Origin: Bacteroidales bacterium
GTDB lineage: Bacteria > Bacteroidota > Bacteroidia > Bacteroidales > P3
DNA length: 64,000 bases
Assembly (NCBI GenBank): GCA_017616895.1
Contig: JAFZXE010000011.1
Coordinates: 82,462-146,461, forward strand
Reading direction: 5' to 3'
This document shows, piece by piece, positions 3 through 17,083 of this stretch. The notes under the pieces are model-generated. The model did no database searches, was not told the DNA's origin, and saw only the letters and a program-made list of their open reading frames with translations. The first letter of the stretch is position 1, and the number at the start of each line of letters is the position of its first letter. A program made the position numbers and the translations under genes.

Positions 3-356
3 GCCCGCCACGACCTGATAATAAGCGGGGTGGATAGCCTCACGAAAGCCTGCGAGGGAAAGCTGGACTTCCTGCTGGACGACTATACCCAGAAAATGAC
101 TCTCAAACTTACCGGCGCAAAAGAGGAGGAGATAAAAGAGGCCACGGACGCGATAAAGGACCTGCACGACAAACACAAGGAGATGCTCGACGGATATGTC
201 GAGAACAAGAAAAACCAGGTCGAGGAAGCCTACCAGCGCTGGCAGGAGAAACAGCAGGAGGGCGACGACCCGCAACAAGAGGAGGACAAGGCCGCCCACG
301 ACCCAGAGAAAGCCATGAAGATGAACCTGGACGACATGGAGGGAAATGTGTTTTAA
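3..356 (+). CDS. C-terminal part of an unidentified acidic helical protein (runs in from the left edge)
   Basis: The reading frame is open from the first complete codon of the window and ends at TAA 354-356, so only about 117 C-terminal residues are visible. A GTG at 30 could be a start, but nothing supports it over read-through from outside the window. The visible part is strongly charged and probably helical or coiled coil, with many Lys, Glu and Gln residues. It ends in an acidic, Gln/Glu-rich tail and the residues GNVF. There is no signal peptide or known motif in the visible part. It lies 60 nt upstream of the E1-like gene on the same strand, so it may be another component of the secretion/conjugation operon. 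I do not recognise the family. Confidence 0.6.
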   Translation, partial: ARHDLIISGVDSLTKACEGKLDFLLDDYTQKMTLKLTGAKEEEIKEATDAIKDLHDKHKEMLDGYVENKKNQVEEAYQRWQEKQQEGDDPQQEEDKAAHDPEKAMKMNLDDMEGNVF

Positions 357-416: not shown

Positions 417-1637
417 TTGGTGATTCCGCAACATAATAATTCACAACCTTGGGGCGACGACGTTTACTCTAAACTGTCGTGGTTCAGGCGCGAGCGAGTA
501 GGGTCAGCCAAAGTGATGGTGGTGGGATGCGGCGCGTTGGGCAACGAGGTGCTGAAGAATCTGGTGCTTTTCGGCGTGGAGCACCTTGTGGTCGTGGATT
601 TTGACCATGTGGAAGCTAGCAATCTGACACGTTCGATACTCTTCACACAAAAGGACGCGGAACAAGGCCGCACGAAGGTAGAGACGGTGGCGGAAAGGCT
701 GCGGGGGATAAATCCCGCTGTCGAGATTCGGCCCATCTTCGGCGATATAGCATACGACGTGGGGCTCGGGCTGCTGAGACGTATGGATGTGGTGATTGGA
801 TGTGTAGATAGCCGCTGGGGGCGATTCTGCATCAACCGCCTGTGTATGCGGGCAGGCGTGCCTTGGGTTGACGGCGGCATTGACGGGTTGGACGGCACTG
901 TGAGAGTCTTTGTGCCTGGAAGAAACTGCTACGCCTGCAACCTCGGAACGGAAGGTTTGAGAGAAATGTCGCAACGCATGTCGTGTACGGGCATTGTGCG
1001 CAGAAACGAAACGGCCGGAAGGGCTGCGACCACTCCCGTTATTGCCTCGATAATCGGGGCGGTGCAAGTGCAGGAGGCTATGAAACTGATACACAAAGAA
1101 GAATTGGAGCAAGGCCATCTAACGTCGCTCTGCGGCAAAGTGTTCCACTATGAAGGCGAGCACATGACCACCCAGACGGCCAACTTCGAGGCCTACGATG
1201 AAGACTGTCCGGAACATGAGCGCTGGGAGCCAATTCAGCAGTCGGCTGTCAGCAGTCAGCAGTCAGTGGAGGAAGCGTTGGAGATACTGGAGAATGAACT
1301 GGGTGGCGACAACGTGACCATACTGTTGCGGAACGACTGCTTTGTCGATTATGTGGAATACAGCACGACGGGAGAACAGCAGAGGGTGATGTGCCAGGGA
1401 CGTATGGTGGCGGACAAGTTGGGAGGAAAGAATGAGTCAGAAAAAATATACCAGCATGAATACAATAGTGTAGATAAGAACTTCCCCTATATAAATTTGA
1501 CCTTGCGACAGTTAGGTCTGCCCGACAACGACGTGATACATGTAAGAACCGAAAATGAAGACAAATACCTGGAACTAAAAAGAATGTGTTATTGTGTTAT
1601 TGCGTTATTGTGTTATTGCGTTAATGCGTTAATGTAG
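417..1637 (+). CDS. E1-like ubiquitin-activating enzyme (ThiF/MoeB/UBA fold)
   Basis: Likely adenylates the C-terminus of the small ubiquitin-like protein encoded downstream and passes it to the E2-like enzyme. Numbering is from the TTG at 417. The nucleotide loop GCGALG is at 37-42, an acidic residue at D61, the NLTR arginine at R72, a lysine at K87 and the aspartate of CVDSR at D131. Likely zinc ligands are C171/C174 (CYAC) and C264/H267 (CPEH). C190 in the MSCTG motif, just before the crossover segment ending in GAVQVQEAMKL, is the best thioester-cysteine candidate. Residues about 285-390 follow a Gln/Ser linker and could form a C-terminal ubiquitin-fold (UFD) domain for E2 docking; this is inferred from the pattern around 359-378. 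The start is TTG 417 or GTG 420; no ATG fits. The last 16 residues are encoded by an intergenic-type repeat. A MoeB/ThiF cofactor role is less likely given the E2 and RING neighbours. Confidence 0.85.
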   Translation: MVIPQHNNSQPWGDDVYSKLSWFRRERVGSAKVMVVGCGALGNEVLKNLVLFGVEHLVVVDFDHVEASNLTRSILFTQKDAEQGRTKVETVAERLRGINPAVEIRPIFGDIAYDVGLGLLRRMDVVIGCVDSRWGRFCINRLCMRAGVPWVDGGIDGLDGTVRVFVPGRNCYACNLGTEGLREMSQRMSCTGIVRRNETAGRAATTPVIASIIGAVQVQEAMKLIHKEELEQGHLTSLCGKVFHYEGEHMTTQTANFEAYDEDCPEHERWEPIQQSAVSSQQSVEEALEILENELGGDNVTILLRNDCFVDYVEYSTTGEQQRVMCQGRMVADKLGGKNESEKIYQHEYNSVDKNFPYINLTLRQLGLPDNDVIHVRTENEDKYLELKRMCYCVIALLCYCVNALM

Positions 1638-1643
1638 GAATGC
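1583..1643. repeat. TGTGTTATTGCGTTATTG-type short tandem repeat overlapping the E1 3' end
   Basis: Repeats of about 9-10 bp built from GTGTTATT and GCGTTAAT cover the last 16 codons of the E1-like gene and its stop. The same repeat family forms the thyA-manC spacer at 31068-31134. The codons give a Cys/Val/Leu/Ala-rich tail that is probably not functional. Confidence 0.7.
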
Positions 1644-1683
1644 GTGAATAGTGATAATTTAAGTTTTCAATTCAACAAATACC

Positions 1684-2463
1684 TTGAAACAATACGAAAT
1701 AAATGAAATCGGAGCGGAGATGCTGCTCAACCGGCTCTATCCAGAAATGGAAGACAAGTGGATAGCGCGGTGCGAGGGCACTTTCTACCGGAACTATATG
1801 GGCGACCATATCTCAGTGTATGATGAAAGCGACGAGGTGGTACTTTCGCGTGACGGCTTTATCAGTCTGCTGCCCGACGGACTTCTTTCTGGCGAAGAAG
1901 ACCTGAGAGGCGGCAACTTCGCCGACAAATACAAGAAGCTGACCCAGCGGATGAAACTTTACAAGGAAGCATTTCTGCCAATAGACACCTTTGCATTCCG
2001 CCAAAGGCTTCATATTGAACGGATGACCTCCGCACTGCTGGAAAACAAGCTCGCCTACCTTCTGAAATCCATCTGGAACTACGACATCGAGGCCGAAACG
2101 AACCCTTACGTACGCGAAGTGGCCGTCATGCTGCCCTATATCAGCAAGATGAGAGCCGATTTGCGCAGTATTGCCAAATTGCTCGGCTCTCTCTTTAACT
2201 GTCGCGCCATGATGAAGACGGGACGCTATAGCCACGAGGACAGCACTAGATATTGGATACCCAGCGTGGAATACCAACTGCTCATTCCCGACCTCAGCGC
2301 CGAACAATACAAAAAACTCAAGGCCGACATCGAGCCTTTGCAGGCTTTCCTGTCCGAATGGCTCATCCCCGCCGAGATGAGATGCGAGATAACCATAAAA
2401 CACCACCGCCAACCGCAAAAGGTCGGTGATGGGTTGATGCTGGATTATAATAGTGAATTGTGA
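1684..2463 (+). CDS. Probable T6SS baseplate protein, TssG-like
   Basis: A 259-residue cytoplasmic-looking protein without signal peptide or membrane segments. It sits between the E1-like gene and tssK in a run that also contains tssE and tssF, where the missing baseplate subunit would be TssG. The segment at about 100-170 (rich in Leu, Arg and Tyr) and a C-terminal part of short beta-like stretches are compatible with TssG, but I see no diagnostic motif, so the call rests mainly on context. The start codon is TTG at 1684; an in-frame stop lies at 1660-1662 and the first in-frame ATG would remove about 12 residues. The last codons run into the GTGAATT repeat array, so the natural C-terminus may have been slightly altered. 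TssG would form the wedge with TssE and TssF. Confidence 0.45.
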   Translation: MKQYEINEIGAEMLLNRLYPEMEDKWIARCEGTFYRNYMGDHISVYDESDEVVLSRDGFISLLPDGLLSGEEDLRGGNFADKYKKLTQRMKLYKEAFLPIDTFAFRQRLHIERMTSALLENKLAYLLKSIWNYDIEAETNPYVREVAVMLPYISKMRADLRSIAKLLGSLFNCRAMMKTGRYSHEDSTRYWIPSVEYQLLIPDLSAEQYKKLKADIEPLQAFLSEWLIPAEMRCEITIKHHRQPQKVGDGLMLDYNSEL

Positions 2464-2542
2464 ATTGTGAATTGTGAATAGTGAAAGTGTGAATTGTGAA
2501 TTGTGAAATAGTGAATTGTGAAATTGTGAAATTGTGAAATTG
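2452..2542. repeat. GTGAATT/GTGAAATT heptamer-octamer repeat array
   Basis: About twelve head-to-tail copies of GTGAATT, some as GTGAAATT or GTGAATA, fill the spacer between the TssG-like gene and tssK and include the final codons of the former. A short related stretch in the opposite orientation (ATTCACA) lies at 45111-45135. No promoter or terminator is visible within it. Confidence 0.85.
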
Positions 2543-2565
2543 ACAAGAATACAAACAAACACAAA

Positions 2566-3717
2566 ATGGATATAAATTCGAGAATCAACTGGAGCTCCGG
2601 AATGGAACTCACCACCGAGACCTTTGCCGGGATGGACCAACACATCGATTTCCAGCAACGCGTCGCCATTCAGGCCGCTTTGGGGGGACAACGCGTAGGC
2701 ATATTGCCCGAAGTGCCCTTCAATAACAGCGGGGTCTTTGTGAAGAACTGTTTCGAGATGGAACATTTCAGGTGCATGGCTCTTCTTGCGTCGGGCAGGA
2801 TTGTGGATGTGGACGAACCTGTGACTGTGACTATTCCGAGGCTCTTTGGCGACTGCTACTATCTTACCGTCGGCTTCGGTGAAGGACAGGCTGAGTATGA
2901 ACGGGAGGGTGTTCCTTACAAAAGGCCCAACTACCGATTCACTCTGAACACCATGGAGGAGATTGAGAACAACGACCTGCTGCCGGTGGTGCGTTTCAAG
3001 GCAAACGAGGGCGTTTTCTCGGTCGATACAGACTTCATCCCCCCCACGTTGCAACTTGTCTGCGACCAACGATTCAAGCCATACATAGACCGCTATGTTG
3101 AACAGATGACCAGCATTGCGACACACGAGCACCTGACCGACGAGTTCGGCAAACGAGCCATGCTACACTACCTTTTCATCCTGAAGAGCTACAGCATGAG
3201 TATGGCCACTACCAATTTCATCCTTTTCACTCAGGAGCTTGCACAGGCAATAAACTATTACATACACTCACTCAATCCACAAAGCGGGCTGACAGCCGAA
3301 ATACCCGAGCCCAACCAGTATGACATTGAAAAGTGGTTGAAATGGCTCGAAGAGTACATGAACAGCGCTGTTTCGGTACTCGACAACGTGGAGCCCAAGG
3401 ACGACACGATTGACTATGAACTGCTGAAAGCACAGATAAAGGCGGAGCTGTATGAGACGATAAAACCCGAACTGCACGACCAAATGCTACCAGAAATTAA
3501 GGAACAATTGAGTCAGGAACTGGAGCAGAAACTGGCCGAGACGCTGAAGGAAAAACTAGAATACACTCTGAAGCCTCAACTGTACAGCCAACTGCGTCAG
3601 GAACTGTCAGACGACCTCTTCCAGCAGTTGTTCGACACCCTTTACGAAGCTCTATACAAAGCCTTGTTTGTACCGGTGGAAAAAGAGGAAGAAAACGAAT
3701 TCGTACCAATGATATGA
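2566..3717 (+). CDS. tssK: T6SS baseplate protein TssK
   Basis: TssK links the T6SS baseplate wedge to the envelope complex. The protein is 383 residues, somewhat shorter than typical proteobacterial TssK of about 440. The N-terminus has the family signature of a tryptophan followed by a GM motif and a phenylalanine/glutamine block: W9, GM at 12-13, and DFQQR at about 28-32. This recalls the W..GM...PQHFQ pattern of TssK. The middle is a mixed beta/helical domain and the last 100 residues (from about 275) are a Gln/Glu/Leu-rich helical stretch with a repeated QLxxEL pattern, probably coiled coil, ending EFVPMI. The ATG at 2566 is the first in frame. tssE follows after 56 nt. TssK is not found in extracellular contractile injection particles, which favours a T6SS over those systems. 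Divergence is expected for the Bacteroidota-type T6SS. Confidence 0.62.
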   Translation: MDINSRINWSSGMELTTETFAGMDQHIDFQQRVAIQAALGGQRVGILPEVPFNNSGVFVKNCFEMEHFRCMALLASGRIVDVDEPVTVTIPRLFGDCYYLTVGFGEGQAEYEREGVPYKRPNYRFTLNTMEEIENNDLLPVVRFKANEGVFSVDTDFIPPTLQLVCDQRFKPYIDRYVEQMTSIATHEHLTDEFGKRAMLHYLFILKSYSMSMATTNFILFTQELAQAINYYIHSLNPQSGLTAEIPEPNQYDIEKWLKWLEEYMNSAVSVLDNVEPKDDTIDYELLKAQIKAELYETIKPELHDQMLPEIKEQLSQELEQKLAETLKEKLEYTLKPQLYSQLRQELSDDLFQQLFDTLYEALYKALFVPVEKEEENEFVPMI

Positions 3718-3768
3718 AGATTAGTTCCAAGTTCTAAGTTTTTAGTTTCAAGTTTTTAGTATCAATTC
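3718..3768. repeat. AAGTTTTTAGTTTC-type short repeat spacer
   Basis: The tssK-tssE spacer contains three imperfect copies of an approximately 12-14 bp unit (AAGTTCTAAGTTTTTAGTTTC and variants). It is the same T-rich family as the spacer at 357-416. Confidence 0.65.
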
Positions 3769-3773
3769 TACCG

Positions 3774-4244
3774 ATGATATCAATTCCTCTACAGATAACA
3801 CCCAAAGGATTTCTTCGTGACGAAACAGTCGAGGATAGTATCGGCCACTCGATAGAGCTTCTGATGCAGACGCCGCTGTATGGATGCAAGGCCGACCCAC
3901 ATTATGGGTTTGTGTTCAAGAACCTGAGATTCGAGATATTCAACGAGAACGAAGGTACAGTCAACGACGGATTGGCGCCAAACACCGAACAAATACAGGC
4001 TATCAAAAACAGCGGCGGCAAAGATCTTTACAAGATAAAGGTTTCGGGCACGTCAAAGAACATCAACACTTTCGCCACCGAACTACAAAAAGCAATAATC
4101 AAGTATGAACCACGGCTCGGCAACATAAGCGTGAGCCTCTCGTACGTGAGAGAAGAGAAAATGATATATGTGAGCGTGAAAGGTTCTATAATAGAAAGCA
4201 ACACTCCTTACAAATATGAAACGACGATAAAGATATGGAATTGA
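3774..4244 (+). CDS. tssE: T6SS baseplate wedge protein TssE (gp25/GPW family)
   Basis: A 156-residue member of the phage gp25/TssE lysozyme-like family, which initiates sheath polymerisation at the baseplate. The signature is in the first 60 residues: a DSIxxSIELLMxTP segment (about 23-38) followed by a GFVFKNLRFEIFN segment (about 49-61). These match the family pattern in which an initial helix with conserved Ser/Ile is followed by a G-x-(3)-x-L-x-F-E/D block. The remainder is alternating strands and helices, ending in a basic strand. Length fits the family (about 130-170). It starts at ATG 3774, 56 nt after tssK, and tssF follows after 55 nt. gp25 proteins also occur in phage tails and extracellular contractile systems; the neighbouring TssK and TssF make T6SS the better reading. 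Confidence 0.75.
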   Translation: MISIPLQITPKGFLRDETVEDSIGHSIELLMQTPLYGCKADPHYGFVFKNLRFEIFNENEGTVNDGLAPNTEQIQAIKNSGGKDLYKIKVSGTSKNINTFATELQKAIIKYEPRLGNISVSLSYVREEKMIYVSVKGSIIESNTPYKYETTIKIWN

Positions 4245-4299
4245 GTCCTTTCTTTTAGTTTCACTTTTCGTTTCAACATTCAACTTTCAATGCAATAAA

Positions 4300-6000
4300 A
4301 TGAATATTTTTGAGACAAGGCAACGTGCACAAGAGCTGCTAAGCGATGCAATAAAGATTTGGCGGCAAAGTCCGCAAAACGAAGCCCTGGAAGGGATGGA
4401 AAACGATGCTGTCATGAATCTGCTGATGACAGCCCTTGCCTTCCAGATGAACGATGCCGACAACGAGATAGAACGCCTGAAGGAGGAAGTGGTGTCCGAG
4501 TATATGCGGATGCTGACTCCATACGAGATGGGGCACGCTGTGCCAGCTTCGGCTGTGGTGGAGGTCTCGTTAAACCGAAATATACCCGAATGGGATGTGG
4601 ATACAGGCAGCATCTTCAAAATGTCGGGTACGCAATACGAGTTTATGCCAATTCTGCACACGCGTGTTATTGGCGGTTACGTCAAGTCGGTTACCCGGTT
4701 AGACGGCAGACGCTGGAACGTGACATTGGCGTTCAATTCGCCGGTTCGTAATCTTTCGGGCTTCTCATTCGCCGTGAAAAATATGTTATTCCATGACCTA
4801 AAGGTTTCCTACAAAGGGGTATATCTGCCTTTGGTCCGGCCATGGGACTATGCCCAACTGCCACTTTCCAAGTGTTTCTCGCTCGACACATCGCTCTATA
4901 ACGACTCTCGGGTTTATGACGCATCTATGGTTGCTATGGACATTTTTGCCAAGCAAAACGTCAGGATGTACTGTGTGAAGAACCACGATGCATCGCGCTA
5001 TATGCCCGACGAAATGGATGAAGTGAACCTTGTGTTTGAGTTTGCTGGTCTCGCAAAGAATTTCATATTCGACAAGAAACAGTTGTCTATCAACAGTGTT
5101 CTTTTGGCCGAAGCACAACTGAACCTCACCACGCTTTCGAGTGAATATCCAATGACCCGAGTTGCCGGAAGCGATATGGATGCCGGCTGTCAGTTTTTAC
5201 ACTTGGTGCGCCCATCGGAAGAGCAAATTTACACGAAGGAACGGGTGGAAGTGAGACGCGTTATGGGAGACCGCTTCAATCAGGGTAGCCTGTTACGCCT
5301 GCTTTCGAGCCTTATAAACAAATACAACACCGATTTCTACGCTTTTCAGAGCAACAAAGCCCTGTCTGACGACGGCACTATACACACATTGCAAGATATT
5401 CTATCGAGACTTATGAGCGTCTGTCAGAGTGACAAGCAGCAAAGTCTTGAAGGTGTGTATCTGTTGCTACACAGCGACACCATCGGTTCGGGCAGCAAAC
5501 TCTCAACGGAGGTACGCTACCTTACCACACACGGCGCTGCCGTCAACAGCTTGCTTTCGACAAGCTCGTCGTTCGAGATTCCTGCTCCGTTTGACGGCAC
5601 AAGTGTACGTCCAATAACCGACCCGATGCCAGGTCTTGATGAAATCGGCGACAAGGCGTGTGAAGAAAGCTTGATGCGCTACCACGTCATCACTAACGAC
5701 CGCATTGTTACGCCGGCCGACATAAAGACTTTTTGCTACAACGAGTTAATGACACGATACAGCATCGACCGCACGATGGTGAAAAGTCTAGATGTAAGCC
5801 GACGTATTCAGCAGGACCCTCACGGGTGCGGTTACGAGATAGTTGCCGAAATAGTGCTCGCCGCCACTTCCACTGTGAAACGCAGTTTCGAAGAGAAAAT
5901 ACCATACGTTGAACAGTTGCTTCAGAAGATGATGGAGGTGAGAAGTTCGGGCGTTTATCCAATTATGGTCAATATCGTGGTCGAGGGAAGTAATCAATAG
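4300..6000 (+). CDS. tssF: T6SS baseplate protein TssF
   Basis: A 566-residue baseplate wedge subunit that, with TssG and TssE, forms the T6SS baseplate. The N-terminal 90 residues are helical and acidic, ending in a YMRMLTPYEMGHAVPA segment that matches the TssF pattern of a conserved proline-rich turn following the first helices. Beta-rich domains follow. Near the C-terminus the segment NDRIVTPADIKTFCYNELMT (about 464-483) is the family's conserved Arg-x-Val-Thr-x-x-Asp motif, shared with baseplate J-type proteins. Length agrees with TssF (about 580-620). There is no signal peptide. It begins at ATG 4300 and is followed after 59 nt by the ubiquitin-like gene, so baseplate and conjugation genes are directly adjacent. 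Confidence 0.75.
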   Translation: MNIFETRQRAQELLSDAIKIWRQSPQNEALEGMENDAVMNLLMTALAFQMNDADNEIERLKEEVVSEYMRMLTPYEMGHAVPASAVVEVSLNRNIPEWDVDTGSIFKMSGTQYEFMPILHTRVIGGYVKSVTRLDGRRWNVTLAFNSPVRNLSGFSFAVKNMLFHDLKVSYKGVYLPLVRPWDYAQLPLSKCFSLDTSLYNDSRVYDASMVAMDIFAKQNVRMYCVKNHDASRYMPDEMDEVNLVFEFAGLAKNFIFDKKQLSINSVLLAEAQLNLTTLSSEYPMTRVAGSDMDAGCQFLHLVRPSEEQIYTKERVEVRRVMGDRFNQGSLLRLLSSLINKYNTDFYAFQSNKALSDDGTIHTLQDILSRLMSVCQSDKQQSLEGVYLLLHSDTIGSGSKLSTEVRYLTTHGAAVNSLLSTSSSFEIPAPFDGTSVRPITDPMPGLDEIGDKACEESLMRYHVITNDRIVTPADIKTFCYNELMTRYSIDRTMVKSLDVSRRIQQDPHGCGYEIVAEIVLAATSTVKRSFEEKIPYVEQLLQKMMEVRSSGVYPIMVNIVVEGSNQ

Positions 6001-6059
6001 CAACAAATTAATGTTTGAAGATTGTACCAAAAGATAACAACATCACAATATAACACAAT

Positions 6060-6377
6060 ATGGAAGATTTCTTTCTGAACATCGTTTACAAGAACAAGAC
6101 AGTGAAATTCCGCGTAGCCAATCCCGAGGCGCCGTTGGGGACGCTGCTAACAAACTTGCGTCACGCAATCGGCAACGATGGCAAACTCATTTTCGACTTT
6201 CCGTCGATAGACTCGACAGGAGCCCCTCTTGACTATTTCTTCGCAAAAGAGGACTCTGCAGTGCATGAGTTGCGTGTTATGCGCCCCCGCATCGGCAATG
6301 CCGAACAGACCTTGGCTGACTACAATGTCCAAAACGGAGATACGGTTTCATTAATTCCAGATCCGTTTCCGGGTTGA
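6060..6377 (+). CDS. Ubiquitin-like protein (beta-grasp, YukD-like) ending in glycine
   Basis: A 105-residue protein that is probably the modifier conjugated by the neighbouring E1 and E2. It opens with a strand, FFLNIVYKNKTVKFRV, followed by a helix around a conserved-looking LGTLLTNLRHAIG segment and further strands. It closes with LADYNVQNGDTVSLIPDPFPG, where the phrase around NGDTVSLI is typical of ubiquitin/YukD-type beta-grasp domains. The C-terminus is a single glycine directly before TGA at 6375-6377, so no tail needs removing before adenylation. It lacks the usual double glycine; the sequence is Pro-Gly. An insertion around residues 45-75 makes it longer than ubiquitin. It lies between tssF (59 nt) and the E2-like gene (70 nt). 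The fold call is by pattern only. Confidence 0.72.
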   Translation: MEDFFLNIVYKNKTVKFRVANPEAPLGTLLTNLRHAIGNDGKLIFDFPSIDSTGAPLDYFFAKEDSAVHELRVMRPRIGNAEQTLADYNVQNGDTVSLIPDPFPG

Positions 6378-6447
6378 TGCCACAGATGGTGGCCATAGAT
6401 ACACAGGAGGTCAGGATAGTTTAGTAAAAGATATTTTATAATAACTA

Positions 6448-7017
6448 ATGCAAATCAAGGATTTCGATATAACCAAGTTCACCGGTCGCAACCGACGGCT
6501 GCTCTACGAGTGGCAGAAGTTGGAGTATGCCTGCCAAAACCGTGATTTCAAAATCGAAATTATTGACACGAACACCTTCGGTTTGCCAACAAGTTATCTT
6601 GTAGTTTATAATATTCACAGCATCTGCGGTGTCACCAACATCGACCAGCTTAACCAGGCCGGGGTTGTGAATGAACCGATTTTCGCCGACAGTTTCAGTA
6701 TGCGAATCGACCTCCCCGAAAACTACCCGTGTGTGGATGGCAGTCCCCAGTTCCGTTTCCTAACTACTGATGCTAATGGCAATGCACTAGAGCATCCTTG
6801 GCATCCGAATATCCGTTGGGCTGGCAGTTTCGCAGGACGTGTATGTGTCAATATGGCAGACACCTATACTGATTTAGTCTGGGGGGTTGAGCGTGTTGCC
6901 GGCTACCTGAGGTATGAGTGCTATCATGCACTTCCTGAACCTCCATACCCAGAGGACCAGTCGGTTGCAGCTTGGGTAATCAGACAGGCCGAACCAAACG
7001 GATGGATACCCTTTTGA
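6448..7017 (+). CDS. E2-like ubiquitin-conjugating enzyme (UBC fold)
   Basis: A 189-residue UBC-fold enzyme predicted to take the ubiquitin-like protein from the E1 and deliver it to targets. The layout follows the fold: an N-terminal helix (about 14-30) with basic and aromatic residues, strands through 35-60 and 80-106, and the H119-P120-N121 motif. C133 in GRVCVN lies 12 residues after N121 and is the expected thioester cysteine; N121 would be the oxyanion-hole asparagine. After it comes a tryptophan region (W145) and helices with Y153/L154, then a PYPED turn and a final helix with AAWV, matching the post-catalytic part of E2-like proteins. These features distinguish it from non-catalytic UBC relatives. 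It starts at ATG 6448. An eukaryotic-type W-P at the usual place is missing. It is among the firmest calls in the conjugation set. Confidence 0.85.
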   Translation: MQIKDFDITKFTGRNRRLLYEWQKLEYACQNRDFKIEIIDTNTFGLPTSYLVVYNIHSICGVTNIDQLNQAGVVNEPIFADSFSMRIDLPENYPCVDGSPQFRFLTTDANGNALEHPWHPNIRWAGSFAGRVCVNMADTYTDLVWGVERVAGYLRYECYHALPEPPYPEDQSVAAWVIRQAEPNGWIPF

Positions 7018-7084
7018 GTCTTTTGTTTCAAGTTTTTAGCCCATTGAAAATAATACATACTTTAATGTACGTCTGTCAAGAAAA

Positions 7085-8248
7085 ATGAAACGCATGAAAA
7101 TATTCAATTTAACCGTTGCAATTATGGTTTCGTTACTGAACGTCTCAATGATGCAAGCACAAACCACCAAAAACATCTCCGTATCAGATAATGAATCATA
7201 CACGGACCATATTGCCTTGAGTAACGACACTAAGGATATGGACTTGATGGTTAAGTTTGTGTTTAACGAAGAAAAAAACACTCTAACCGTCAGTCTTATT
7301 TCGTACAGGACACTTTTTGTTTTCTGGGACAACGCAAGATACAAGAAAGCGATAAAACACCGTCGCATAAAACCAGATAATCTGCCATACGTGGTGAGCA
7401 GCAATCCTGGCGACCAGTTCAGAGTTACCCGAACATTCCGCAAGACCATTCCCAAACCCCGCCGAAAACAAATTCTCAAAAAGTGGATAGAAGTGAGCGG
7501 ACTTCAACCTATCGATAAAGAATTGATGATGGTGAACGACTTTATCGAACAGACGTTTGACATACAGGGAAAACTCGGCGTAGTAACTGTTCGGTTGCGC
7601 GATGTTATGCTCCTCGACGAGGTTAAGAAAAAATCTTCGTCAAGCCGCTATGACATAACATACGGAAGAGACCTGAACATAACCTACAAGGTGTCCCTAC
7701 AGCGTAACCCATGCTTCGGTCTTGACGAAGAGATTGCGTCTTCAGCCAACTCACTTGAAGCAATAAGTAAGAGTTATGCCACACTGCGTAAAACGGCAGA
7801 TAAAGTATCAAACGATGAGAGCCACAAGGTTTTTATTGATATGAAGGCGACACTGATAGAACAGTTCCCCAAGAATACCACTGCAAGCCGATGCGCTGAT
7901 ATCCAACAGTCTCGTGACAAGTACAACCAAATAGTTGACTCCATACAGGCACTTGATACAAAAATTGACGCTGTGGCGGCATCCGGTGCGGCTGGGCCAA
8001 TGGTCGATGGTGGAGGATTAAATGCCAGGGAAATACTATCCAATGCCCGTATATTGGACAATACTGTCTCGCGGTGGCTTGCCAGCCGTGATCCCGCCGA
8101 GCGTGCCGACTTGGTGGCTCAGGGTCGCAGTATCATAAAGGACATAAACACTCTGATAAGCGGCAGATATGGACAGACCAGCGAAGAAAAAAATGCAATT
8201 ACGGTTTTCCGCAAGGCTGAAAAATATTTCAACAAAGTATGCAAATAA
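7085..8248 (+). CDS. Exported protein of unknown family in the T6SS/ubiquitin-like operon
   Basis: A 387-residue protein with a Sec signal peptide (MKRMKIFN start, hydrophobic core to about residue 24, cleavage near MQA-QTT). The first part of the mature chain (about 30-215) looks beta-rich with a basic patch (TFRKTIPKPRRKQILKK), and the second part (about 220-387) is helical with Gln/Asp/Ser-rich segments and a glycine/alanine-rich break (AASGAAGPMVDGGG) near 300. Two ATGs (7085 and 7097) would each give a signal peptide. It starts 67 nt after the E2-like gene and its last codons overlap the next gene. I do not recognise the family. Bacteroidota T6SSs lack TssJLM and use other envelope proteins, so a role as a periplasmic component is a reasonable inference, not shown by the sequence. 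Confidence 0.7.
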   Translation: MKRMKIFNLTVAIMVSLLNVSMMQAQTTKNISVSDNESYTDHIALSNDTKDMDLMVKFVFNEEKNTLTVSLISYRTLFVFWDNARYKKAIKHRRIKPDNLPYVVSSNPGDQFRVTRTFRKTIPKPRRKQILKKWIEVSGLQPIDKELMMVNDFIEQTFDIQGKLGVVTVRLRDVMLLDEVKKKSSSSRYDITYGRDLNITYKVSLQRNPCFGLDEEIASSANSLEAISKSYATLRKTADKVSNDESHKVFIDMKATLIEQFPKNTTASRCADIQQSRDKYNQIVDSIQALDTKIDAVAASGAAGPMVDGGGLNAREILSNARILDNTVSRWLASRDPAERADLVAQGRSIIKDINTLISGRYGQTSEEKNAITVFRKAEKYFNKVCK

Positions 8249-9156
8249 GATATAAAAAGCATGGGCTCTTGATGGTCAGGTTGAAACTGGTGGTGGTTTT
8301 TATCATCTCCCTGTTTTTTAATATTCAATCAGACACCGTTTCTGCTCAGGATGAATCTATGATAGATCCGTTCCGCGAGCAGCAGTTGTCAGGTCGTATG
8401 ATTCAATTCATCGACGATTTCAATCGCCTATACACTTCCGATGGTATGCGTTTTGGCCGTGCCATGTCCGATTTTGAATCAGCGACCCATGTTCAGGTTG
8501 TCGGACAGAAGATACGAATGTTGAATAATAGTTTTCAGTCACTTGATTTCAGGTGGAATGCATTTGTACAGTCCGAGCAAGTCGAAATCGCCGAGAGTGA
8601 AGAACTTATGGATTTGATGACAAAGGTTCAGCAGCTTAAACAGGCTGTTGGCGACAGTATAGCGGCTCAGCAGAACAAGTGCGACGCAGTGGCTGACTTT
8701 ATTGAAGCTGAGCGCTATCTTGCCTCTCAGGACACCATATACAAGGAGCTCTATAAGAAGGCGCGGAATCTTTCTTTAGTTAAACAGTTGGCCCCTCAGC
8801 TGGAAAAAGTAAAAAATGAGGAAAAATCGGCATTTGAGAAGATAGAAACAAGCTATGGCAAATCAAGAGAGGCTGCGCAGCTCATACCGCAACTGAATAC
8901 TCGCGCTGACTGTTTAGAAGAGCGGTACTTGGCACTAAAGTCTATTTCCGGCAAAATCCAGGCAATGGAGTACAAGCCTTTAATAGAACGAGCCAAGGAC
9001 TACCTGATGGGATTGGCATGTGTGTCGGTGATTCTCATATTTTTCAATATGATCGTAACAAAAATTAAAGCAGCAAAAAAAGCCCGCGAGATGCTGAAAA
9101 AACAGAAAGAGCTGCTCTCAAGAAACAACAATAACAGTGAATATCCCACGATATAA
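8239..9156 (+). CDS. Exported coiled-coil protein with a C-terminal membrane anchor, unknown family
   Basis: A 305-residue protein with an N-terminal hydrophobic segment reading as a signal peptide (RLKLVVVFIISLFFNIQ, end near SAQ), a long helical ectodomain (about 40-250) full of Gln, Glu and Ala heptad-like stretches, one membrane segment (MGLACVSVILIFFNMIV, about 258-274) and a short very basic cytoplasmic tail (KAAKKAREMLKKQKELL). The predicted topology is periplasmic ectodomain and cytoplasmic tail. ATG 8239 overlaps the preceding gene by 10 nt; ATG 8272 gives a more usual signal-peptide length and may be the true start. The overlap suggests translational coupling. No known motif was found. 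It may bridge the periplasm and the inner membrane in the secretion machine; that is inference from topology and neighbours. Confidence 0.7.
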   Translation: MQIRYKKHGLLMVRLKLVVVFIISLFFNIQSDTVSAQDESMIDPFREQQLSGRMIQFIDDFNRLYTSDGMRFGRAMSDFESATHVQVVGQKIRMLNNSFQSLDFRWNAFVQSEQVEIAESEELMDLMTKVQQLKQAVGDSIAAQQNKCDAVADFIEAERYLASQDTIYKELYKKARNLSLVKQLAPQLEKVKNEEKSAFEKIETSYGKSREAAQLIPQLNTRADCLEERYLALKSISGKIQAMEYKPLIERAKDYLMGLACVSVILIFFNMIVTKIKAAKKAREMLKKQKELLSRNNNNSEYPTI

Positions 9157-9229
9157 TAATATGGTGAAGGATTCCTTAATCACAGGAAATTCAATTGACA
9201 ACTAATTCTGACAATCAAACAATAACGCA

Positions 9230-11578
9230 ATGTCAATACGAATCTTACTATCCAGAATCGCAATAGTATTCAGTTTGGTCTGTGTCACAGCGTGTGGCAA
9301 GTTCGACAAAACTTTGGACGACAACGTTGATCCCGATATTCTTTCTCATCTGTTTGAAAAAAAGGATGAGAAAATCAAAGTTGTGGACGTTGAATTTGCG
9401 ACCGACTATAAAACATTCACAGTCTCCACTGATGTCGAGCATGATGTAGGCTATCACGAACTCAAGGATTCAACAAAAGTCCGTGTGGAGGTCAAGGAAA
9501 CCATTGAAGGTGTTGGAATGGCCAGATTCACAACCCCTCGTTTAAAAGAAATAAAAAACATTGAGGCAGAAAGTGTTTCTCAACTGGGTATAAAAATGCT
9601 GGTTTTAATAGACCGTACACTTCCTCAATCAAATCTTGATGCACTACGGTCTCTTGTATTGGAGATGAAAACCACCTTTACTGGAGACAATTTGTATGTC
9701 GCCTTTATGGATAGCAATAGCGTATCCGAATCTATGTTGGCTTCCGATTATGTGCTTGACAATTATTTTGTCAAGTCTCGCTCTAATCATGTGTGCCTAT
9801 ACAGGTCGATACTCCAGAAGAGCCAAGAAATGTTGCAGAGAGATAATTGTTGGATGGATGCCACAAAACTGGTTTTGCTCACTTTCTCAAATGAAAAAGT
9901 CTATCAAGACGGCAGTGACGAACCTCTTGATCCGAACCATTTCCTGTTCCAAGAGCAACTGACAGACAGGGATTTTGAACTTGACGACACGTCGTTTGTC
10001 GCCTACTACGCCAGTATGAACACCTTGCAAAACGGAGATGACGATTATGCAAAAAACATTCTGCGCATTTTTTGTACAAACACAGGTGGTCAATATATCG
10101 ACAATTTCAACTGGGTGTCATTTAAACGTGACATGTACCGAACCCTGAATATTATCACCCCAGACAATGAGTTTCTATTTGAGAACCCAGACAACAAAGT
10201 CTATCGAGGCGACAATAAACGGCTGATGGTCAGCTTCTATGATATTAAAGCCGACACCCTTATGGCATCGTTCACGGCTTCTATCAACAAAGGAGAGATG
10301 TTCGATCCGATAATAGTCAACGAACAACCATTTCACCATATCATCATTCAAGGCATCATACTTGGAATATTCCTTATAGCTTTAGTTTATCTTGCTATAC
10401 AAATAATAGTTCCATTCGTCTCGTATTGCATTTTTCGCCGCAGGTATGTCGTAAAATACACTGGACGTGGCATGTGTTTTGACAGCAAGCCTGTTGGAGA
10501 GTGCTGTTATCTATGCAAAGCACCTTTTGAAAAAGGCGATGATATTGTTGTCAAGTGTGAGCACACTACACACAAAACTTGTTGGGATGAAAACTCGTAC
10601 CACTGCCCTGAATACAGCGACCGCTGCAAACATGGCTCGCACTACTACAATGTTCACAAAATCCATGACCCACGGAATGCCCCTTATTACCTGAAATGGC
10701 TTTTGGTTGCCATCGCAGCATCGGTATTTTCTTGGCTGATTTTCCTTATGTATGTGCATTTTGACTACTATTCAAACCTTTACCCCTTCGCTCATTCTTC
10801 AGTCACCCAGCCCCCATTCCTCGGTCTTTCCATTGCTTTTTTCCTTACGTTAGGGCTCTCGGCCCTTGCATTGCGTCGCAGGACAAACATTCGTGCTGCG
10901 CTTTCTGTGACTCTTCGCGCTGTTATCGCTGCCGTAGGATGCTATCTTTCGTTCATGGTCATCAACTTGATTATCTTCATTTTCAACATCAATAATTATA
11001 CTTTTCTAATCAATTGGATACCTTGGACTTTGTCGGGATTTATTATTGCTGCATGCACCACCTTCGCCACAAGCATACGTCACAGCCGTTGGATTCTTCT
11101 GGCAAGCGTATTGGTCGGATTTCTGTCCATGTATGCCTGGAACACTCTTTTCTGCTTCTTCGAACTTGACTTCAGGCTCTTCACTCTTCTAAGTTTTGTC
11201 ATATACTGTATAGGTCTTGCCCTGGCCATCGCCGTTGCTGCCCCTCGTTCCGAACGCTATTTCTTAAAGGTTCAAGGGGCTGTCAAAACTATGGATATCG
11301 CCCTCTACAAATGGTTCCGCAACAATCCAGACCGTGTTGTGACGATAGGCAAATCTGTTGATTGCTCTCTGCAGCTTTCGTGGGACCTACAAGGCGAAGT
11401 CGCTCCTGTGCAGGCCGAGATACGTATGCGCAAACGTTCTCCATACCTCATCCCTATTGAGCCCGGTGTATATATGCGCGGCAAAAAACTCCGTGTAAAC
11501 AAAAAATACCGTCTCTTCCACGGACGTACCTTCACTATCGGCCAAACAAATTTCACCTACGTTGAAAAAGACCGTTAA
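9230..11578 (+). CDS. Membrane RING-finger-like protein with lipobox, VWA-like and FHA-like domains (candidate E3)
   Basis: A 782-residue multidomain protein. The N-terminus has a lipobox VTAC (C22) after a hydrophobic segment. A VWA-like domain spans about 120-310: strand IKMLVLID with D128, and a later TKLVLLTFS strand, but a poor metal motif. The first membrane segment lies at about 372-400 and is followed by FRRRYVVKY, placing the next part in the cytoplasm. The zinc motif there is C426-x2-C429-x13-C443-x-H445-x2-H448-x2-C451-x7-C459-x6-C466, a RING-H2 pattern with an irregular last pair. About six membrane segments follow (488-670), returning the C-terminus to the cytoplasm, where 700-778 resembles an FHA domain (IGKSVDCSLQL) without the usual Arg/Ser/His pocket. 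Together with E1, E2 and Ubl genes it is a candidate membrane-bound E3 or scaffold. It ends the operon. Confidence 0.8.
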   Translation: MSIRILLSRIAIVFSLVCVTACGKFDKTLDDNVDPDILSHLFEKKDEKIKVVDVEFATDYKTFTVSTDVEHDVGYHELKDSTKVRVEVKETIEGVGMARFTTPRLKEIKNIEAESVSQLGIKMLVLIDRTLPQSNLDALRSLVLEMKTTFTGDNLYVAFMDSNSVSESMLASDYVLDNYFVKSRSNHVCLYRSILQKSQEMLQRDNCWMDATKLVLLTFSNEKVYQDGSDEPLDPNHFLFQEQLTDRDFELDDTSFVAYYASMNTLQNGDDDYAKNILRIFCTNTGGQYIDNFNWVSFKRDMYRTLNIITPDNEFLFENPDNKVYRGDNKRLMVSFYDIKADTLMASFTASINKGEMFDPIIVNEQPFHHIIIQGIILGIFLIALVYLAIQIIVPFVSYCIFRRRYVVKYTGRGMCFDSKPVGECCYLCKAPFEKGDDIVVKCEHTTHKTCWDENSYHCPEYSDRCKHGSHYYNVHKIHDPRNAPYYLKWLLVAIAASVFSWLIFLMYVHFDYYSNLYPFAHSSVTQPPFLGLSIAFFLTLGLSALALRRRTNIRAALSVTLRAVIAAVGCYLSFMVINLIIFIFNINNYTFLINWIPWTLSGFIIAACTTFATSIRHSRWILLASVLVGFLSMYAWNTLFCFFELDFRLFTLLSFVIYCIGLALAIAVAAPRSERYFLKVQGAVKTMDIALYKWFRNNPDRVVTIGKSVDCSLQLSWDLQGEVAPVQAEIRMRKRSPYLIPIEPGVYMRGKKLRVNKKYRLFHGRTFTIGQTNFTYVEKDR

Positions 11579-11668
11579 CTTTGTTCGATGATTAGTAAAT
11601 CAATGTATGACTGATATCGTTAAAGTATAATGTCAGATATGCAGACATACGGGTTACCCTATTGATAA
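11579..11668. other. Probable island/core junction
   Basis: These 90 bases separate the end of the RING gene from the comM remnant. They are AT-rich and have no gene. Base composition changes from AT-leaning upstream to GC-rich and Cys/Pro-codon-rich downstream within about 150 bp. No direct repeat or tRNA end was recognised. Confidence 0.4.
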
Positions 11669-12328
11669 TCCACATCTTACAAACGGCACAAATTTATCCT
11701 CTTGGATGAACTACCTGAATTTAAGCGCACTGCGCTTGAAGTGCTGCGCCAACCCATGGAGGAACGCCACGTCACTATCAGCCGCGCCAAGACCACCATC
11801 GAATACCCAGCCTCCTTCATGCTCATCGCAGCCATGAACCCCTGCCCCTGCGGCTACTACAACCACCCCACCATCGCGTGCACCTGCCCTCCAGGCGCCG
11901 TCCACCGCTACCTCAACAAAGTCAGCGGCCCACTCATGGACCGCATCGACATCCACATCGAAGTAATACCCGTCCCCGTCGCCGAACTCGGCAAGGCTCT
12001 CCCCTCCGAACCCAGCGCCGTCATCCGCGAGCGAGTAATAGCCGCCCGAGCCATACAGACGGAGCGTTTCAAGAACACCCCAAACGTCCACTGCAATGCC
12101 CAGATGACCAGCAAGCTCACCCGCCAGTACTGCCAACTGTCCGACCAGTGCCGCACCATAATGGAAGCCGCCATGAACCGTCTAGGCCTCTCCGCAAGAG
12201 CCTACGACCGCATCCTAAGGGTAGCAAGAACCATAGCCGACCTCGAAGCCAACCCCCAAATAACCCCAACCCACCTCTCCGAAGCCATAACCTACCGCTC
12301 CCTCGACCGCGACTCCTGGGGCAAGTGA
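11669..12328 (+). pseudogene. comM: 5'-truncated ComM/YifB-like Mg-chelatase AAA+ ATPase
   Basis: The frame (open after TAA 11666-11668) gives the C-terminal part of the YifB/ComM family, a branch-migration helicase used in natural transformation. It begins just before the Walker B segment, LLDELPEFKR, and contains the CPCGYYNHP and C-x-C zinc-like cluster, the DRIDIHIEV sensor region and the C-terminal Mg_chelatase_C part (GLSARAYDRILRVARTIADLE). A full-length protein has about 500 residues; the first 290 or so, including the Lon-protease-like domain and the Walker A loop, are absent. The first usable start (TTG 11702) lies inside the Walker B motif, so a working ATPase cannot be made. The break is at the edge of the T6SS/ubiquitin-like run. 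It is either a recombination scar or, if this is an assembled metagenome, a chimeric join. Confidence 0.8.
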
Positions 12329-12366
12329 CATTATCTAATAATATCCAAAGACAAGAAAGGAGATGC

Positions 12367-12702
12367 TTAATGCATCTCCTTTAGTTTCTCGTCCAGTTTT
12401 TCGACCACCTGTTTGTGGATTAGTTCGTATTTGTCGGCGTGGCGCATGTAGTAGGCCATACTCTCGTCGAACTGCTGTTGCGTGACTCCGTGCTTTGCGA
12501 AGATGCTGTCGTAGGTGGCCACAATCACGGGGTCGGTAATTATGCTGTCCATGCCGCGTTCCACAGCGTAGAAACCTTCGAGCTGATAGGCGTCGGTGAG
12601 CAGCGCCACCATCTGAGGTTCCTCAATCAAGCACTTCGGCTTGCGATCACAGGCGGCACACAACAACAGGAATATTGCGGAAATGGCTATAATACGATTC
12701 AT
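12367..12702 (-). CDS. DUF4296-type lipoprotein
   Basis: A 111-residue lipoprotein with an N-terminal signal and lipobox LLCAAC (cysteine at about 18), so it is probably anchored in the outer or inner membrane. The mature part matches the small Bacteroidota family DUF4296: an MVALLTDAYQLEG helix, a short acidic stretch, a DSIFAKHGVTQQQFDESMAYYMRH helix and a lysine-rich tail. Function is unknown for the family. It lies downstream of the hydrogenase operon on the same strand but beyond a strong terminator (12777-12814), and a TAnnTTTG-like box stands before it, so it is probably transcribed alone. Confidence 0.75.
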   Translation of the reverse strand: MNRIIAISAIFLLLCAACDRKPKCLIEEPQMVALLTDAYQLEGFYAVERGMDSIITDPVIVATYDSIFAKHGVTQQQFDESMAYYMRHADKYELIHKQVVEKLDEKLKEMH

Positions 12703-12734
12703 TTGCGACAGGATTTGTTATACTTTACGGTTGG

Positions 12735-12742
12735 CAAAGTTA
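12735..12742 (-). promoter_or_regulatory. Possible Bacteroidota -7 element before the DUF4296 gene
   Basis: The + strand reads CAAAGTTA, that is TAACTTTG on the minus strand, an exact TAnnTTTG box 33 nt upstream of the start codon. No clear -33 TTTG element is present at 19-21 nt spacing, so the call is tentative. Confidence 0.4.
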
Positions 12743-12776
12743 CGACTTTTTGCAAGATTGGTAACGTTTGCGGCGT

Positions 12777-12814
12777 AAAAAAATCGTGCCACGCTTTGCA
12801 GCATGGCACGATTT
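12777..12814 (-). terminator. Intrinsic terminator of the hydrogenase operon
   Basis: On the minus strand an 11-bp perfect stem (AAATCGTGCCA pairing with TGGCACGATTT) with additional inner GC pairs is followed by a run of seven T. It lies 20 nt after the hydC stop codon. Confidence 0.85.
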
Positions 12815-12834
12815 CATTAACGAATCTGCTCGTC

Positions 12835-13311: not shown

Positions 13312-13325
13312 TTTCTTTATTTTTT

Positions 13326-13398
13326 TGTGACCCGTGACCCGTGACCTGTGATACGAATGATTTCATCTCACTGGTCACTGGTCACTCATCACTGGTTA
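13326..13398. repeat. GTGACCCGTGACC / CACTGGTCACTGG short repeats
   Basis: The hydA-hydC spacer has three copies of a GTGACCCGTGACCTGTGA unit followed by an inverted set of CACTGGTCACTGGTCACTCATCACTGG. A shorter GTGACTTGTGACCTGTGACC copy lies at 55422-55446 before aroE. Confidence 0.75.
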
Positions 13399-13399
13399 C

Positions 13400-15193: not shown

Positions 15194-15214
15194 TGTTTCT
15201 TATTGTTTTTATGT

Positions 15215-15245
15215 CGGACTAGTCAGACTAGTCAGACTGGTCGGA
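15215..15245. repeat. GACTAGTCA tandem repeat in the hydB-hydA spacer
   Basis: Three imperfect copies of a 10-bp unit (GGACTAGTCA, GACTAGTCAGACTGGTC) fill the short hydB-hydA spacer. The unit is palindromic, so it could form small hairpins. It is not followed by a T run. Confidence 0.7.
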
Positions 15246-15250
15246 CAATT

Positions 15251-17065: not shown

Positions 17066-17083
17066 AATTCTTTTTGTTAGTTT

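What the first reader, a model, noticed from the sequence alone, without database searches (positions are those of the whole stretch)
417..11578. Ubiquitin-like conjugation genes interleaved with T6SS baseplate genes in one operon
E1-like, probable TssG, TssK, TssE, TssF, a ubiquitin-like protein, E2-like, two exported proteins and a RING-like membrane protein lie in this order on one strand with gaps of about 45-100 nt and one overlap. The E1 is separated from its Ubl and E2 by the baseplate genes, so this is not two neighbouring operons but one interleaved set. Bacterial E1/E2/Ubl operons with RING proteins were described by comparative genomics (Iyer, Burroughs, Aravind), and Bil-type systems act in phage defence, but I do not recall one embedded in a T6SS baseplate locus. 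The inference is that a baseplate, sheath, effector or membrane protein is a conjugation target, or that conjugation gates assembly or firing of the machine.
Basis: partly seen in the sequence, partly recalled or inferred. Interest (0 to 1): 0.96.

Follow-up and report, generated by a model that had tools for sequence, protein, structure and literature searches.

The report
Ubiquitin-like tagging system inside T6SS
A family of bacterial needle-like weapons (type VI secretion systems) in gut and rumen bacteria carries a complete ubiquitin-like protein-tagging pathway inside its own operon, apparently in place of the usual membrane anchor, which suggests that these weapons are built or triggered by protein tagging of a kind best known from our own cells.

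Summary
Window 417-11578 encodes E1, TssG, TssK, TssE, TssF, a ubiquitin-like protein (Ubl), E2, two exported/membrane proteins (X8, X9) and a vWA-RING-FHA membrane protein; ClpV, sheath, Hcp, VgrG and PAAR-like genes lie directly upstream. The ten-gene order is complete in 71 of 81 loci; 7 are cut by contig ends and 3 have X9 fused to RING. Catalytic residues do not vary: Ubl C-terminal Gly 81/81, E2 HPN and Cys 86/86, E1 Cys 81/81. Divergent Bacteroidales keep the same partners in another gene order. Of 8 TssC-positive genomes in an order-wide sample, 4 had this E2, 3 TssN, 1 neither, none both. Of 48 E2 genomes, one has TssN over the cut-off, with a second TssC of canonical type. Related cassettes with a membrane JAMM protease lie beside an extracellular contractile injection system and beside SrfBC genes. 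I read this as a T6SS-iii variant in which a membrane-tethered Ubl cascade stands where the TssN-TssR complex is not detected, probably controlling docking or firing. The substrate is unknown. Ten paper searches showed no report.

The parts
3..356 (+). 3' end of a conserved gene 'g19631' without predicted TM (starts upstream, L001:19631), usually just upstream of E1 or divergent from it
   Evidence: homologs in 55 of 81 loci
417..1637 (+). E1-like activating enzyme: ThiF fold, catalytic Cys190, C171/C174 + C264/H267 metal site, extra C-terminal domain (UFD-like by inference only, not tested). The last ~15 residues look like repeat-derived tail.
   Evidence: PF00899 2.9e-53; PDB sequence search: UBA7 2.1e-25, UBA2 5.9e-21, MoeB 5.9e-19, but NCBIfam ThiF/MoeB models outscore Ube1; Cys190 in 81 of 81 rows that have the position, G057 counted twice
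1684..2463 (+). TssG-like baseplate protein
   Evidence: family profile vs canonical TssG of G288 prob 98.8, of G208 prob 38.4; no significant Pfam hit
2566..3717 (+). TssK baseplate protein with charged C-terminal coil
   Evidence: TIGR03353 1.9e-8, below cut-off; PF05936 3.6e-4, below cut-off; hhalign 97.8 and 99.6
3774..4244 (+). TssE (gp25-like)
   Evidence: PF04965 5.7e-9, over cut-off
4300..6000 (+). TssF
   Evidence: hhalign prob 99.2 to canonical TssF; no Pfam hit
6060..6377 (+). Ubiquitin-like protein, beta-grasp, 105 aa, ends in ...DPFPG with no tail
6448..7017 (+). E2-like conjugating enzyme with HPN motif and catalytic Cys133
   Evidence: UQ_con 1.4e-4, below cut-off; profile vs PDB best UBE2K 4e-5; H, P, N, C in 86 of 86
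7085..8248 (+). X8: exported (signal peptide) two-domain protein, beta-rich N-half, helical C-half
   Evidence: 80 of 81 loci; AF2 pLDDT 92.3; no convincing PDB match
8239..9156 (+). X9: signal peptide, periplasmic coiled region, one TM, short cytosolic tail; position of the membrane JAMM protein in three divergent T6SS-type loci
   Evidence: in 3 of 81 loci X9 and RING form one polypeptide; JAMM protein between E2 and RING in G366, G057, G235
9230..11578 (+). Candidate E3 hub: signal/lipobox (by eye), periplasmic vWA, TM, cytosolic RING-like Zn site, about six further TMs (inferred), cytosolic FHA
   Evidence: FHA 1.5e-5, Prok-RING_1 0.0013 below cut-off; vWA in homologs; 8 Zn ligands in 80-81 of 82 rows, one row a C-terminal fragment; hydropathy and charge

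Best explanation
This is a variant of the Bacteroidota T6SS (T6SS-iii) in which a complete E1-E2-Ubl cascade with a membrane-bound RING-like protein is a core part of the machine. It stands where the known TssN-TssQ-TssO-TssP-TssR membrane complex is not detected. Proposed mechanism: (1) E1 adenylates the C-terminal glycine of the Ubl and loads its own cysteine; (2) it passes the Ubl to the E2 cysteine; (3) the vWA-RING-FHA protein in the inner membrane senses a periplasmic or envelope cue through vWA and a phosphorylated partner through FHA, recruits E2~Ubl through its cytosolic RING, and directs the Ubl onto a neighbouring T6SS protein, most likely a baseplate subunit (TssK, TssF or TssG) or itself; (4) the attached Ubl docks the baseplate to the membrane hub, or licenses assembly and firing; (5) in divergent relatives a membrane-anchored cytosolic JAMM protease trims the Ubl tail and can remove the tag, whereas in the window lineage that protease is not found and the Ubl is made ready-ended. 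Shown by sequence: the parts, their intact catalytic residues, the operon linkage, the non-detection of TssN, and the JAMM/tail pattern. Inferred: covalent conjugation, the substrate, and steps 3 to 5.
For: Order E1-TssG-TssK-TssE-TssF-Ubl-E2-X8-X9-RING complete in 71 of 81 loci, 7 more cut by contig ends, 3 with an X9-RING fusion; 704 of 708 core gaps (overlaps included) are at most 100 nt. G235, G366 and G057 have another order (ClpV-TssB-TssC-Hcp-Hcp-VgrG-...-Ubl-E2-...-RING-...-E1-TssG-TssK-TssE-TssF) with the same partners. Catalytic residues invariant. In 247 Bacteroidales genomes TssC is in 8, E2 in 5, TssN over cut-off in 3; within the 8 TssC genomes 4 have E2 only, 3 TssN only, 1 neither, 0 both. 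Of 48 E2 genomes tested (from 48 of the 80 loci), TssC is in 46 and TssN over cut-off in 1, which has two TssC genes, one canonical-type. X8, X9, RING and three upstream proteins show no profile similarity to canonical TssN/O/P/Q/R, while TssG/K/F/E do match (Pfam control on the canonical locus). Canonical TssN carries a ubiquitin-like domain thought to dock the baseplate and TssR a vWA domain (PMC10781749, passages and section 11 read), so the same fold types recur here in different molecules. JAMM motif in 0 of 80 window-type loci; all 81 window-type Ubls end in Gly without a tail; the 7 tailed Ubls seen all lie in loci with a JAMM protein.
Against: No conjugate has been observed. The RING has a C-x6-C last pair and scores below the Pfam cut-off, and in two relatives (G545, G639) the Zn ligands are largely lost, so the RING is not essential to every cassette. 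NCBIfam ThiF and MoeB models score higher on the E1 (131 and 107 bits) than the Ube1 model (54 bits), so a sulfur-carrier-type ancestry is not excluded by E1 alone. No deconjugase is seen at the window-type loci or in the own genome (88% complete). Absence of TssN-TssR rests on profile searches: TssN genome-wide, the other four only on proteins of the locus; very diverged homologs cannot be excluded. Two of the 48 genomes give sub-threshold TssN matches, and one coiled upstream protein gives a chance-level TssO match (E 0.09). The cassette also exists without a T6SS (G205 with SrfBC) and in several genomes with no injection system in the stretch fetched, so the Ubl pathway is not specific to T6SS parts.
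Confidence: 0.5

Rival explanations
1. Recycling tag: the Ubl marks contracted or misassembled T6SS parts at the membrane for disassembly or proteolysis (for example by the ClpV/Clp machinery), so the cascade acts after firing and not before.
For: A ClpV-like ATPase is in the same gene cluster; quality control is a classic use of Ubl tags (established knowledge).
Against: No protease or Ubl-receptor domain was seen among the cluster proteins scanned; no JAMM is found in the window type, which fits a recyclable tag less well; it gives no reason why TssN-TssR should be missing.
Confidence: 0.17
2. The cascade modifies cargo: effectors, Hcp or the very long VgrG proteins receive the Ubl, which marks or loads them for delivery.
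For: An extended Hcp (318 aa) and two 1411/1450 aa VgrGs lie in the same cluster; related cassettes lie beside genes with eCIS_core domains.
Against: Ubl, E1 and E2 genes are interleaved with baseplate genes and not with cargo genes; the VgrG/Hcp side is the variable part between loci.
Confidence: 0.13
3. No protein conjugation: the Ubl is a non-covalent scaffold or a thiocarboxylate carrier, and E1/E2 do something else.
For: Bacterial ThiF/Ubl pairs often act in sulfur transfer (established knowledge); ThiF and MoeB are the best NCBIfam models for the E1; YukD-like Ubls can be structural (recalled).
Against: HPN plus catalytic Cys in 86 of 86 E2s and the E1 Cys in 81 of 81 would have no use without transthiolation; by PDB sequence search single-domain scores are slightly higher for SUMO E1 UBA2 and UBA1 (about 78 bits) than for MoeB (71 bits).
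Confidence: 0.08
4. An anti-phage Ubl cassette (Bil/CBASS/6E type) that happens to lie in a T6SS island.
For: E1 matches PADLOC E1-E2 models (2e-17) and BilD weakly (6.8e-7).
Against: Ubl, E2 and RING match no PADLOC model at E 0.01; E1 is followed by TssG in all 77 loci where E1 was found and TssF by Ubl in 81 of 81; the partnership persists under another gene order; the E2 has no hit in the phage or plasmid collections.
Confidence: 0.03

Closest known systems
Canonical Bacteroidota T6SS-iii (TssB-TssC, Hcp, VgrG, ClpV, TssE/F/G/K plus TssN-TssQ-TssO-TssP-TssR; PMC10781749)
   Same: TssC of the Bacteroidota family PF17541, TssD-type Hcp PF17642, TssE/F/G/K, VgrG, ClpV-like ATPase
   Different: No TssN-TssR detected; E1, E2, Ubl and a vWA-RING-FHA membrane protein instead. 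In a TssC tree the Ubl type is separated from the canonical rows by long branches, except that the G235 TssC (Ubl type) sits at the base of the canonical side.
Bacterial Ubl conjugation operons (Bil, Bub, 6E/CBASS types; Iyer, Burroughs, Aravind 2006, PMC1779556, passages seen)
   Same: E1 + E2 + Ubl, and in divergent relatives a JAMM protease
   Different: Separate E1 and E2 genes, a membrane vWA-RING-FHA protein, embedded in a secretion machine. The passages of the 2006 paper that I saw (12 of 18 places) describe no such operon.
Eukaryotic ubiquitin cascade
   Same: E1 sequence matches UBA7, UBA1, UBA2 in the PDB; E2 profile best match UBE2K, with HPN and Cys
   Different: Ubl ends in PG or AG and not GG; at most 22% identity in the structural rows listed; one-piece E1 of about 400 aa
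Extracellular contractile injection system (eCIS) with a neighbouring E1-Ubl-E2-JAMM-vWA/FHA cassette (found here)
   Same: Homologous cassette in a similar gene order
   Different: eCIS in place of T6SS; JAMM kept; RING ligands degraded in G545 and G639. eCIS sheath, tube and Pvc16_N shown in G545 only; G639 and G1006 have eCIS-type neighbours and G1022 a Pvc16 relative about 7 kb away.

Membership tests
T6SS-iii (Bacteroidota) | Sheath TssC of PF17541 and TssD-type Hcp PF17642 | tested here: met
   3.8e-102 and 1.1e-31 in the upstream locus
T6SS-iii (Bacteroidota) | Baseplate TssE, TssF, TssG, TssK | tested here: met
   TssE over Pfam cut-off; TssK by TIGR03353 below cut-off; TssF and TssG by profile comparison only
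T6SS-iii (Bacteroidota) | ClpV-type AAA+ ATPase, VgrG, PAAR-like tip | tested here: met
   AAA_2 1.5e-58 with ClpB_D2-small 4.4e-15; Phage_base_V 2.2e-17 and DUF4280 7e-34; that DUF4280 is PAAR-like is recalled
T6SS-iii (Bacteroidota) | TssN-TssQ-TssO-TssP-TssR membrane complex | tested here: not met
   TssN no match in G000 and none over cut-off in 47 of 48 E2 genomes, two of these with sub-threshold matches; X8, X9, RING, PEGA, g19631 and the lipoprotein give hhalign probability 0.3 or less to TssN/O/P/Q/R. TssO/P/Q/R were not searched genome-wide; strong divergence not excluded. I therefore call it a variant lacking this feature.
Ubl conjugation cascade | E1 with ThiF fold and catalytic Cys | tested here: met
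   best NCBIfam models are ThiF/MoeB
Ubl conjugation cascade | E2 with UBC fold, HPN and Cys | tested here: met
   Pfam score below cut-off in the window copy
Ubl conjugation cascade | Beta-grasp Ubl with exposed C-terminal Gly | tested here: met
   no Foldseek E-value at or below 0.001
Ubl conjugation cascade | RING E3 | tested here: inconclusive
   Eight conserved Cys/His ligands in 80-81 of 82 rows, Prok-RING_1 below cut-off
Ubl conjugation cascade | Covalent Ubl-substrate conjugates | not testable with these tools
   needs biochemistry
Bil / CBASS / other Ubl phage-defence systems | Family-specific E2, Ubl and DUB models | tested here: not met
   Ubl, E2 and RING match no PADLOC model at E 0.01; only E1 matches
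T6SS-i membrane complex TssJ-TssL-TssM | TssJ, TssL, TssM | not tested
   No Pfam match to them among the proteins scanned, but no genome-wide search was made

The most novel reading that the evidence does not exclude
A new class of contractile injection machine in which covalent Ubl tagging is a core assembly step: the ubiquitin-like docking domain that canonical TssN carries built in is here supplied in trans, as a free Ubl attached by E1/E2 and a membrane E3, so that docking of the baseplate to the envelope becomes a switchable covalent reaction. The E1-Ubl-E2-JAMM-vWA/FHA cassette is a general regulator that has been combined separately with T6SS, eCIS and SrfBC systems.
Probability: 0.35. 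Interest if true: 0.97.

Novelty: new variant of a known kind. Interest (0 to 1): 0.92.

Why it matters
Bacterial ubiquitin-like pathways with known roles act mainly in phage defence or sulfur chemistry (established knowledge). A full E1-E2-RING-type cascade built into a secretion machine would be a different biological role, in common rumen and gut Bacteroidales. It would make testable how a T6SS without any recognised membrane complex is anchored and triggered, and it gives a simple prokaryotic system, with invariant catalytic residues and candidate substrates in one operon, for studying how ubiquitin signalling began.

Tried and rejected

Papers: ten searches were answered. No listed title or abstract start described a T6SS or contractile system with an E1/E2/Ubl cascade; five lists were cut (20 of 23, 20 of 65, 20 of 496, 20 of 13,671 and 15 of 31 papers). 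Passages were seen of PMC1779556, PMC3482391, PMC4714493, PMC8213781, PMC11354881 and PMC10781749 (of the last also section 11). Subscription papers are not held; in particular Burroughs and colleagues' work on prokaryotic RING fingers (recalled, not seen) may touch related gene neighbourhoods.
Full report
WHAT IS THERE. The ten ORFs of the finding exist at 417-11578, all on the + strand, with gaps of 46 to 102 nt and one overlap of 10 nt. E1 is a ThiF-fold protein (2.9e-53). TssK matches TIGR03353 (1.9e-8) and TssE matches PF04965 (5.7e-9). E2 matches UQ_con (1.4e-4). The last protein has an FHA domain (1.5e-5) and a Prok-RING_1-like site (0.0013). TssK, E2 and RING are below the curated cut-offs, Pfam gives nothing significant for TssG and TssF, and the Ubl only reaches E 0.05. 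I therefore tested them further.

THE REST OF THE MACHINE. The window begins inside a T6SS cluster. Directly upstream on the same strand lie a ClpV-like ATPase (AAA_2 1.5e-58), a lipoprotein, a TssB-like protein (named by place and by homology to the TssB of related loci; no Pfam hit), TssC (PF17541 3.8e-102), three Hcp-type proteins (PF17642), two very long VgrGs, two coiled proteins, a DUF4280 protein (7e-34; PAAR-like by recall) and a PEGA protein. So E1, Ubl, E2 and the RING protein sit inside one T6SS gene set.

CONSERVATION OF THE ORDER. An alignment of 20 E2 homologs found 117 relatives in the one-genome-per-species collection, of which 80 loci were kept (two of them, L066 and L082, are contigs of one MAG). 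They include isolates named Xylanibacter ruminicola, Prevotella sp., Bacteroides mediterraneensis, Mediterranea massiliensis, Millionella massiliensis, Caecibacteroides pullorum and Parabacteroides distasonis. With the window that makes 81 loci. The complete order E1-TssG-TssK-TssE-TssF-Ubl-E2-X8-X9-RING is present in 71 of 81; 7 are cut by contig ends and show the part that is left; 3 have X9 and RING in one polypeptide. 704 of 708 gaps between core genes are at most 100 nt, overlaps included. In 13 loci the recognised genes next upstream of E1 are divergent, so there the operon starts at E1. Misassembly or chance is not a plausible explanation.

A SECOND GENE ORDER. More divergent Bacteroidales (G235, G366, G057) have ClpV-TssB-TssC-Hcp-Hcp-VgrG, then Ubl-E2-...-RING, then E1-TssG-TssK-TssE-TssF; G429 shows the part from ClpV to just beyond E2, where its contig ends. 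The order differs but the partners are the same, which argues for a functional link over a frozen arrangement.

WHAT IS NOT DETECTED. In 247 Bacteroidales genomes, TssC occurs in 8, this E2 in 5 and TssN over its cut-off in 3 (7 at E 0.001 or better; the other 4 are sub-threshold hits in genomes without TssC). Among the 8 TssC genomes, 4 have E2 without TssN, 3 have TssN without E2, none has both, and 1 (G426, on a 5.4 kb contig) has neither. From the 80 loci I gave 48 genomes to a TssN search: 1 is over the cut-off (G471), 2 more are sub-threshold; G471 has two TssC genes on two contigs, one of canonical type; TssC is in 46 of 48. Profile comparison finds canonical TssG, TssK, TssF and TssE but no TssN, TssO, TssP, TssQ or TssR among X8, X9, RING, PEGA, g19631 or the lipoprotein (probability 0.3 or less). 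One coiled upstream protein gives a chance-level TssO match (E 0.09, below cut-off). As a control, Pfam recognises TssN, TssO and TssR in the canonical locus of G208; TssP and TssQ were assigned there by place. TssO to TssR were not searched genome-wide. PMC10781749 (section 11 read) states that the membrane complex or part of it is found in all T6SS-iii that it surveyed; this type therefore lies outside its description.

THE JAMM PROTEASE. T6SS-type loci of G366, G057 and G235 have, between E2 and RING, a protein with an outer domain, one TM and a cytosolic JAMM domain. It was not found in G429, whose contig ends two genes further. None of the 80 window-type loci has the motif in the flanks held (up to 10 kb each side), and PF01398 has no match in the own genome (88% complete). 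Ubl tails beyond the glycine occur in G057, G205, G639, G1006, G1022, G1085 and G959, all with a JAMM protein nearby, and in none of the 81 window-type Ubls; G366, G235, G545 and G940 have a JAMM protein without a tail. The simple reading is that the protease trims and removes the Ubl, and that trimming became dispensable once the Ubl was encoded ready-ended. X9 of the window has the same topology without the protease domain.

OTHER PARTNERS. In G205 the cassette E1-Ubl-E2-JAMM-vWA/RING lies with SrfB (1e-213) and SrfC-type genes and no TssC was found. In another order, a search of 248 genomes gave matches in 12, 8 of them strong; the 4 weak ones were not followed. In G545 the cassette lies on one contig with an eCIS: tube 1.4e-28, sheath 1.8e-10, Pvc16_N 3.9e-25, and a PAAR gene next door. 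G639 has the same neighbours by eye as far as the PAAR-like gene; its sheath side was not fetched. G1006 has PAAR, M23 and eCIS_core relatives next door but no sheath or tube in the stretch fetched, and G1022 has a Pvc16 relative about 7 kb away; in G1085, G940, G959 and G974 no sheath or tube gene was found in the stretch fetched. So the cassette is broader than T6SS, with injection machines as repeated but not obligatory partners. In G545 and G639 the RING ligands are largely lost while vWA and FHA remain in G545 by Pfam.

MECHANISM. From topology the RING protein would place vWA in the periplasm and RING and FHA in the cytosol, next to the baseplate. Canonical TssN has a ubiquitin-like domain thought to dock the baseplate, and TssR has a vWA domain (PMC10781749). 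I propose that in this variant the docking or licensing step is a covalent one: E1 and E2 charge the Ubl, and the membrane RING protein, responding to an envelope signal through vWA and to phosphorylation through FHA, attaches it to a baseplate or hub protein. Known by sequence: parts, active sites, linkage, TssN not detected. Inferred: conjugation, substrate, and direction of control. Rivals are a recycling tag, cargo modification, or no conjugation at all.

LIMITS. Distribution is patchy: 3 of 190 genomes of the window's family, 5 of 247 in the order sample, 3 of 395 in the phylum sample, the other two being G545 and G639; the own genome is included in each count. The TssC tree has long branches, and the G235 TssC sits at the base of the canonical side, so whether the Ubl type is ancestral or derived is open. 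Ten literature searches showed no description, but several lists were cut and subscription papers are not held.

Noticed in passing
window 11702-12328 and L002:8110-9669: The T6SS region (~42 kb) is flanked by a full-length comM-like gene (named by eye) and, at its other end, a 3' fragment of the same gene (629 bp, 94% identical), the mark of an island inserted at comM. No integrase search was made.
   Followed up: partly
L106/L112 (G205): Ubl cassette with JAMM protease beside SrfB and SrfC-type genes and a subtilase, plus a second, tandem-Ubl protein of 357 aa as read from the stretch held (L112:18811-19884): a possible Ubl link for the poorly understood SrfABC system.
   Followed up: partly
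L150, L152, L151, L167, L168: Homologous E1-Ubl-E2-JAMM-vWA/FHA cassettes beside or near genes of extracellular contractile injection systems (full set shown in G545 only), with degraded RING ligands in two of them.
   Followed up: partly
L068 genome (G471, Bacteroides mediterraneensis): One genome carries both T6SS types: TssN and a canonical-type TssC, and the Ubl type; a natural place to compare them.
   Followed up: no
L010, L017, L027: X9 and the RING protein are fused into one 1066-1109 aa polypeptide, suggesting that they work as one unit.
   Followed up: yes
L001:5225-9460, 11384-15736 with 9474-11264, 15792-17585: Duplicated pair of a very long VgrG (1411/1450 aa) and a coiled ~597 aa protein of unknown role; relatives of the coiled protein occur in 50 of 81 loci.
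   Followed up: no
window 1585-1640 and 2455-2545: Spacers and the end of the E1 ORF contain short repeated units (TGTTATTGCG..., GTGAATTGTGAATT...); the last ~15 E1 residues look like read-through of such a repeat.
   Followed up: no
window 12835-15193 (-): A NuoE-like gene and an [FeFe]-hydrogenase-like gene next to the island (named by eye from the translation, no search made).
   Followed up: no
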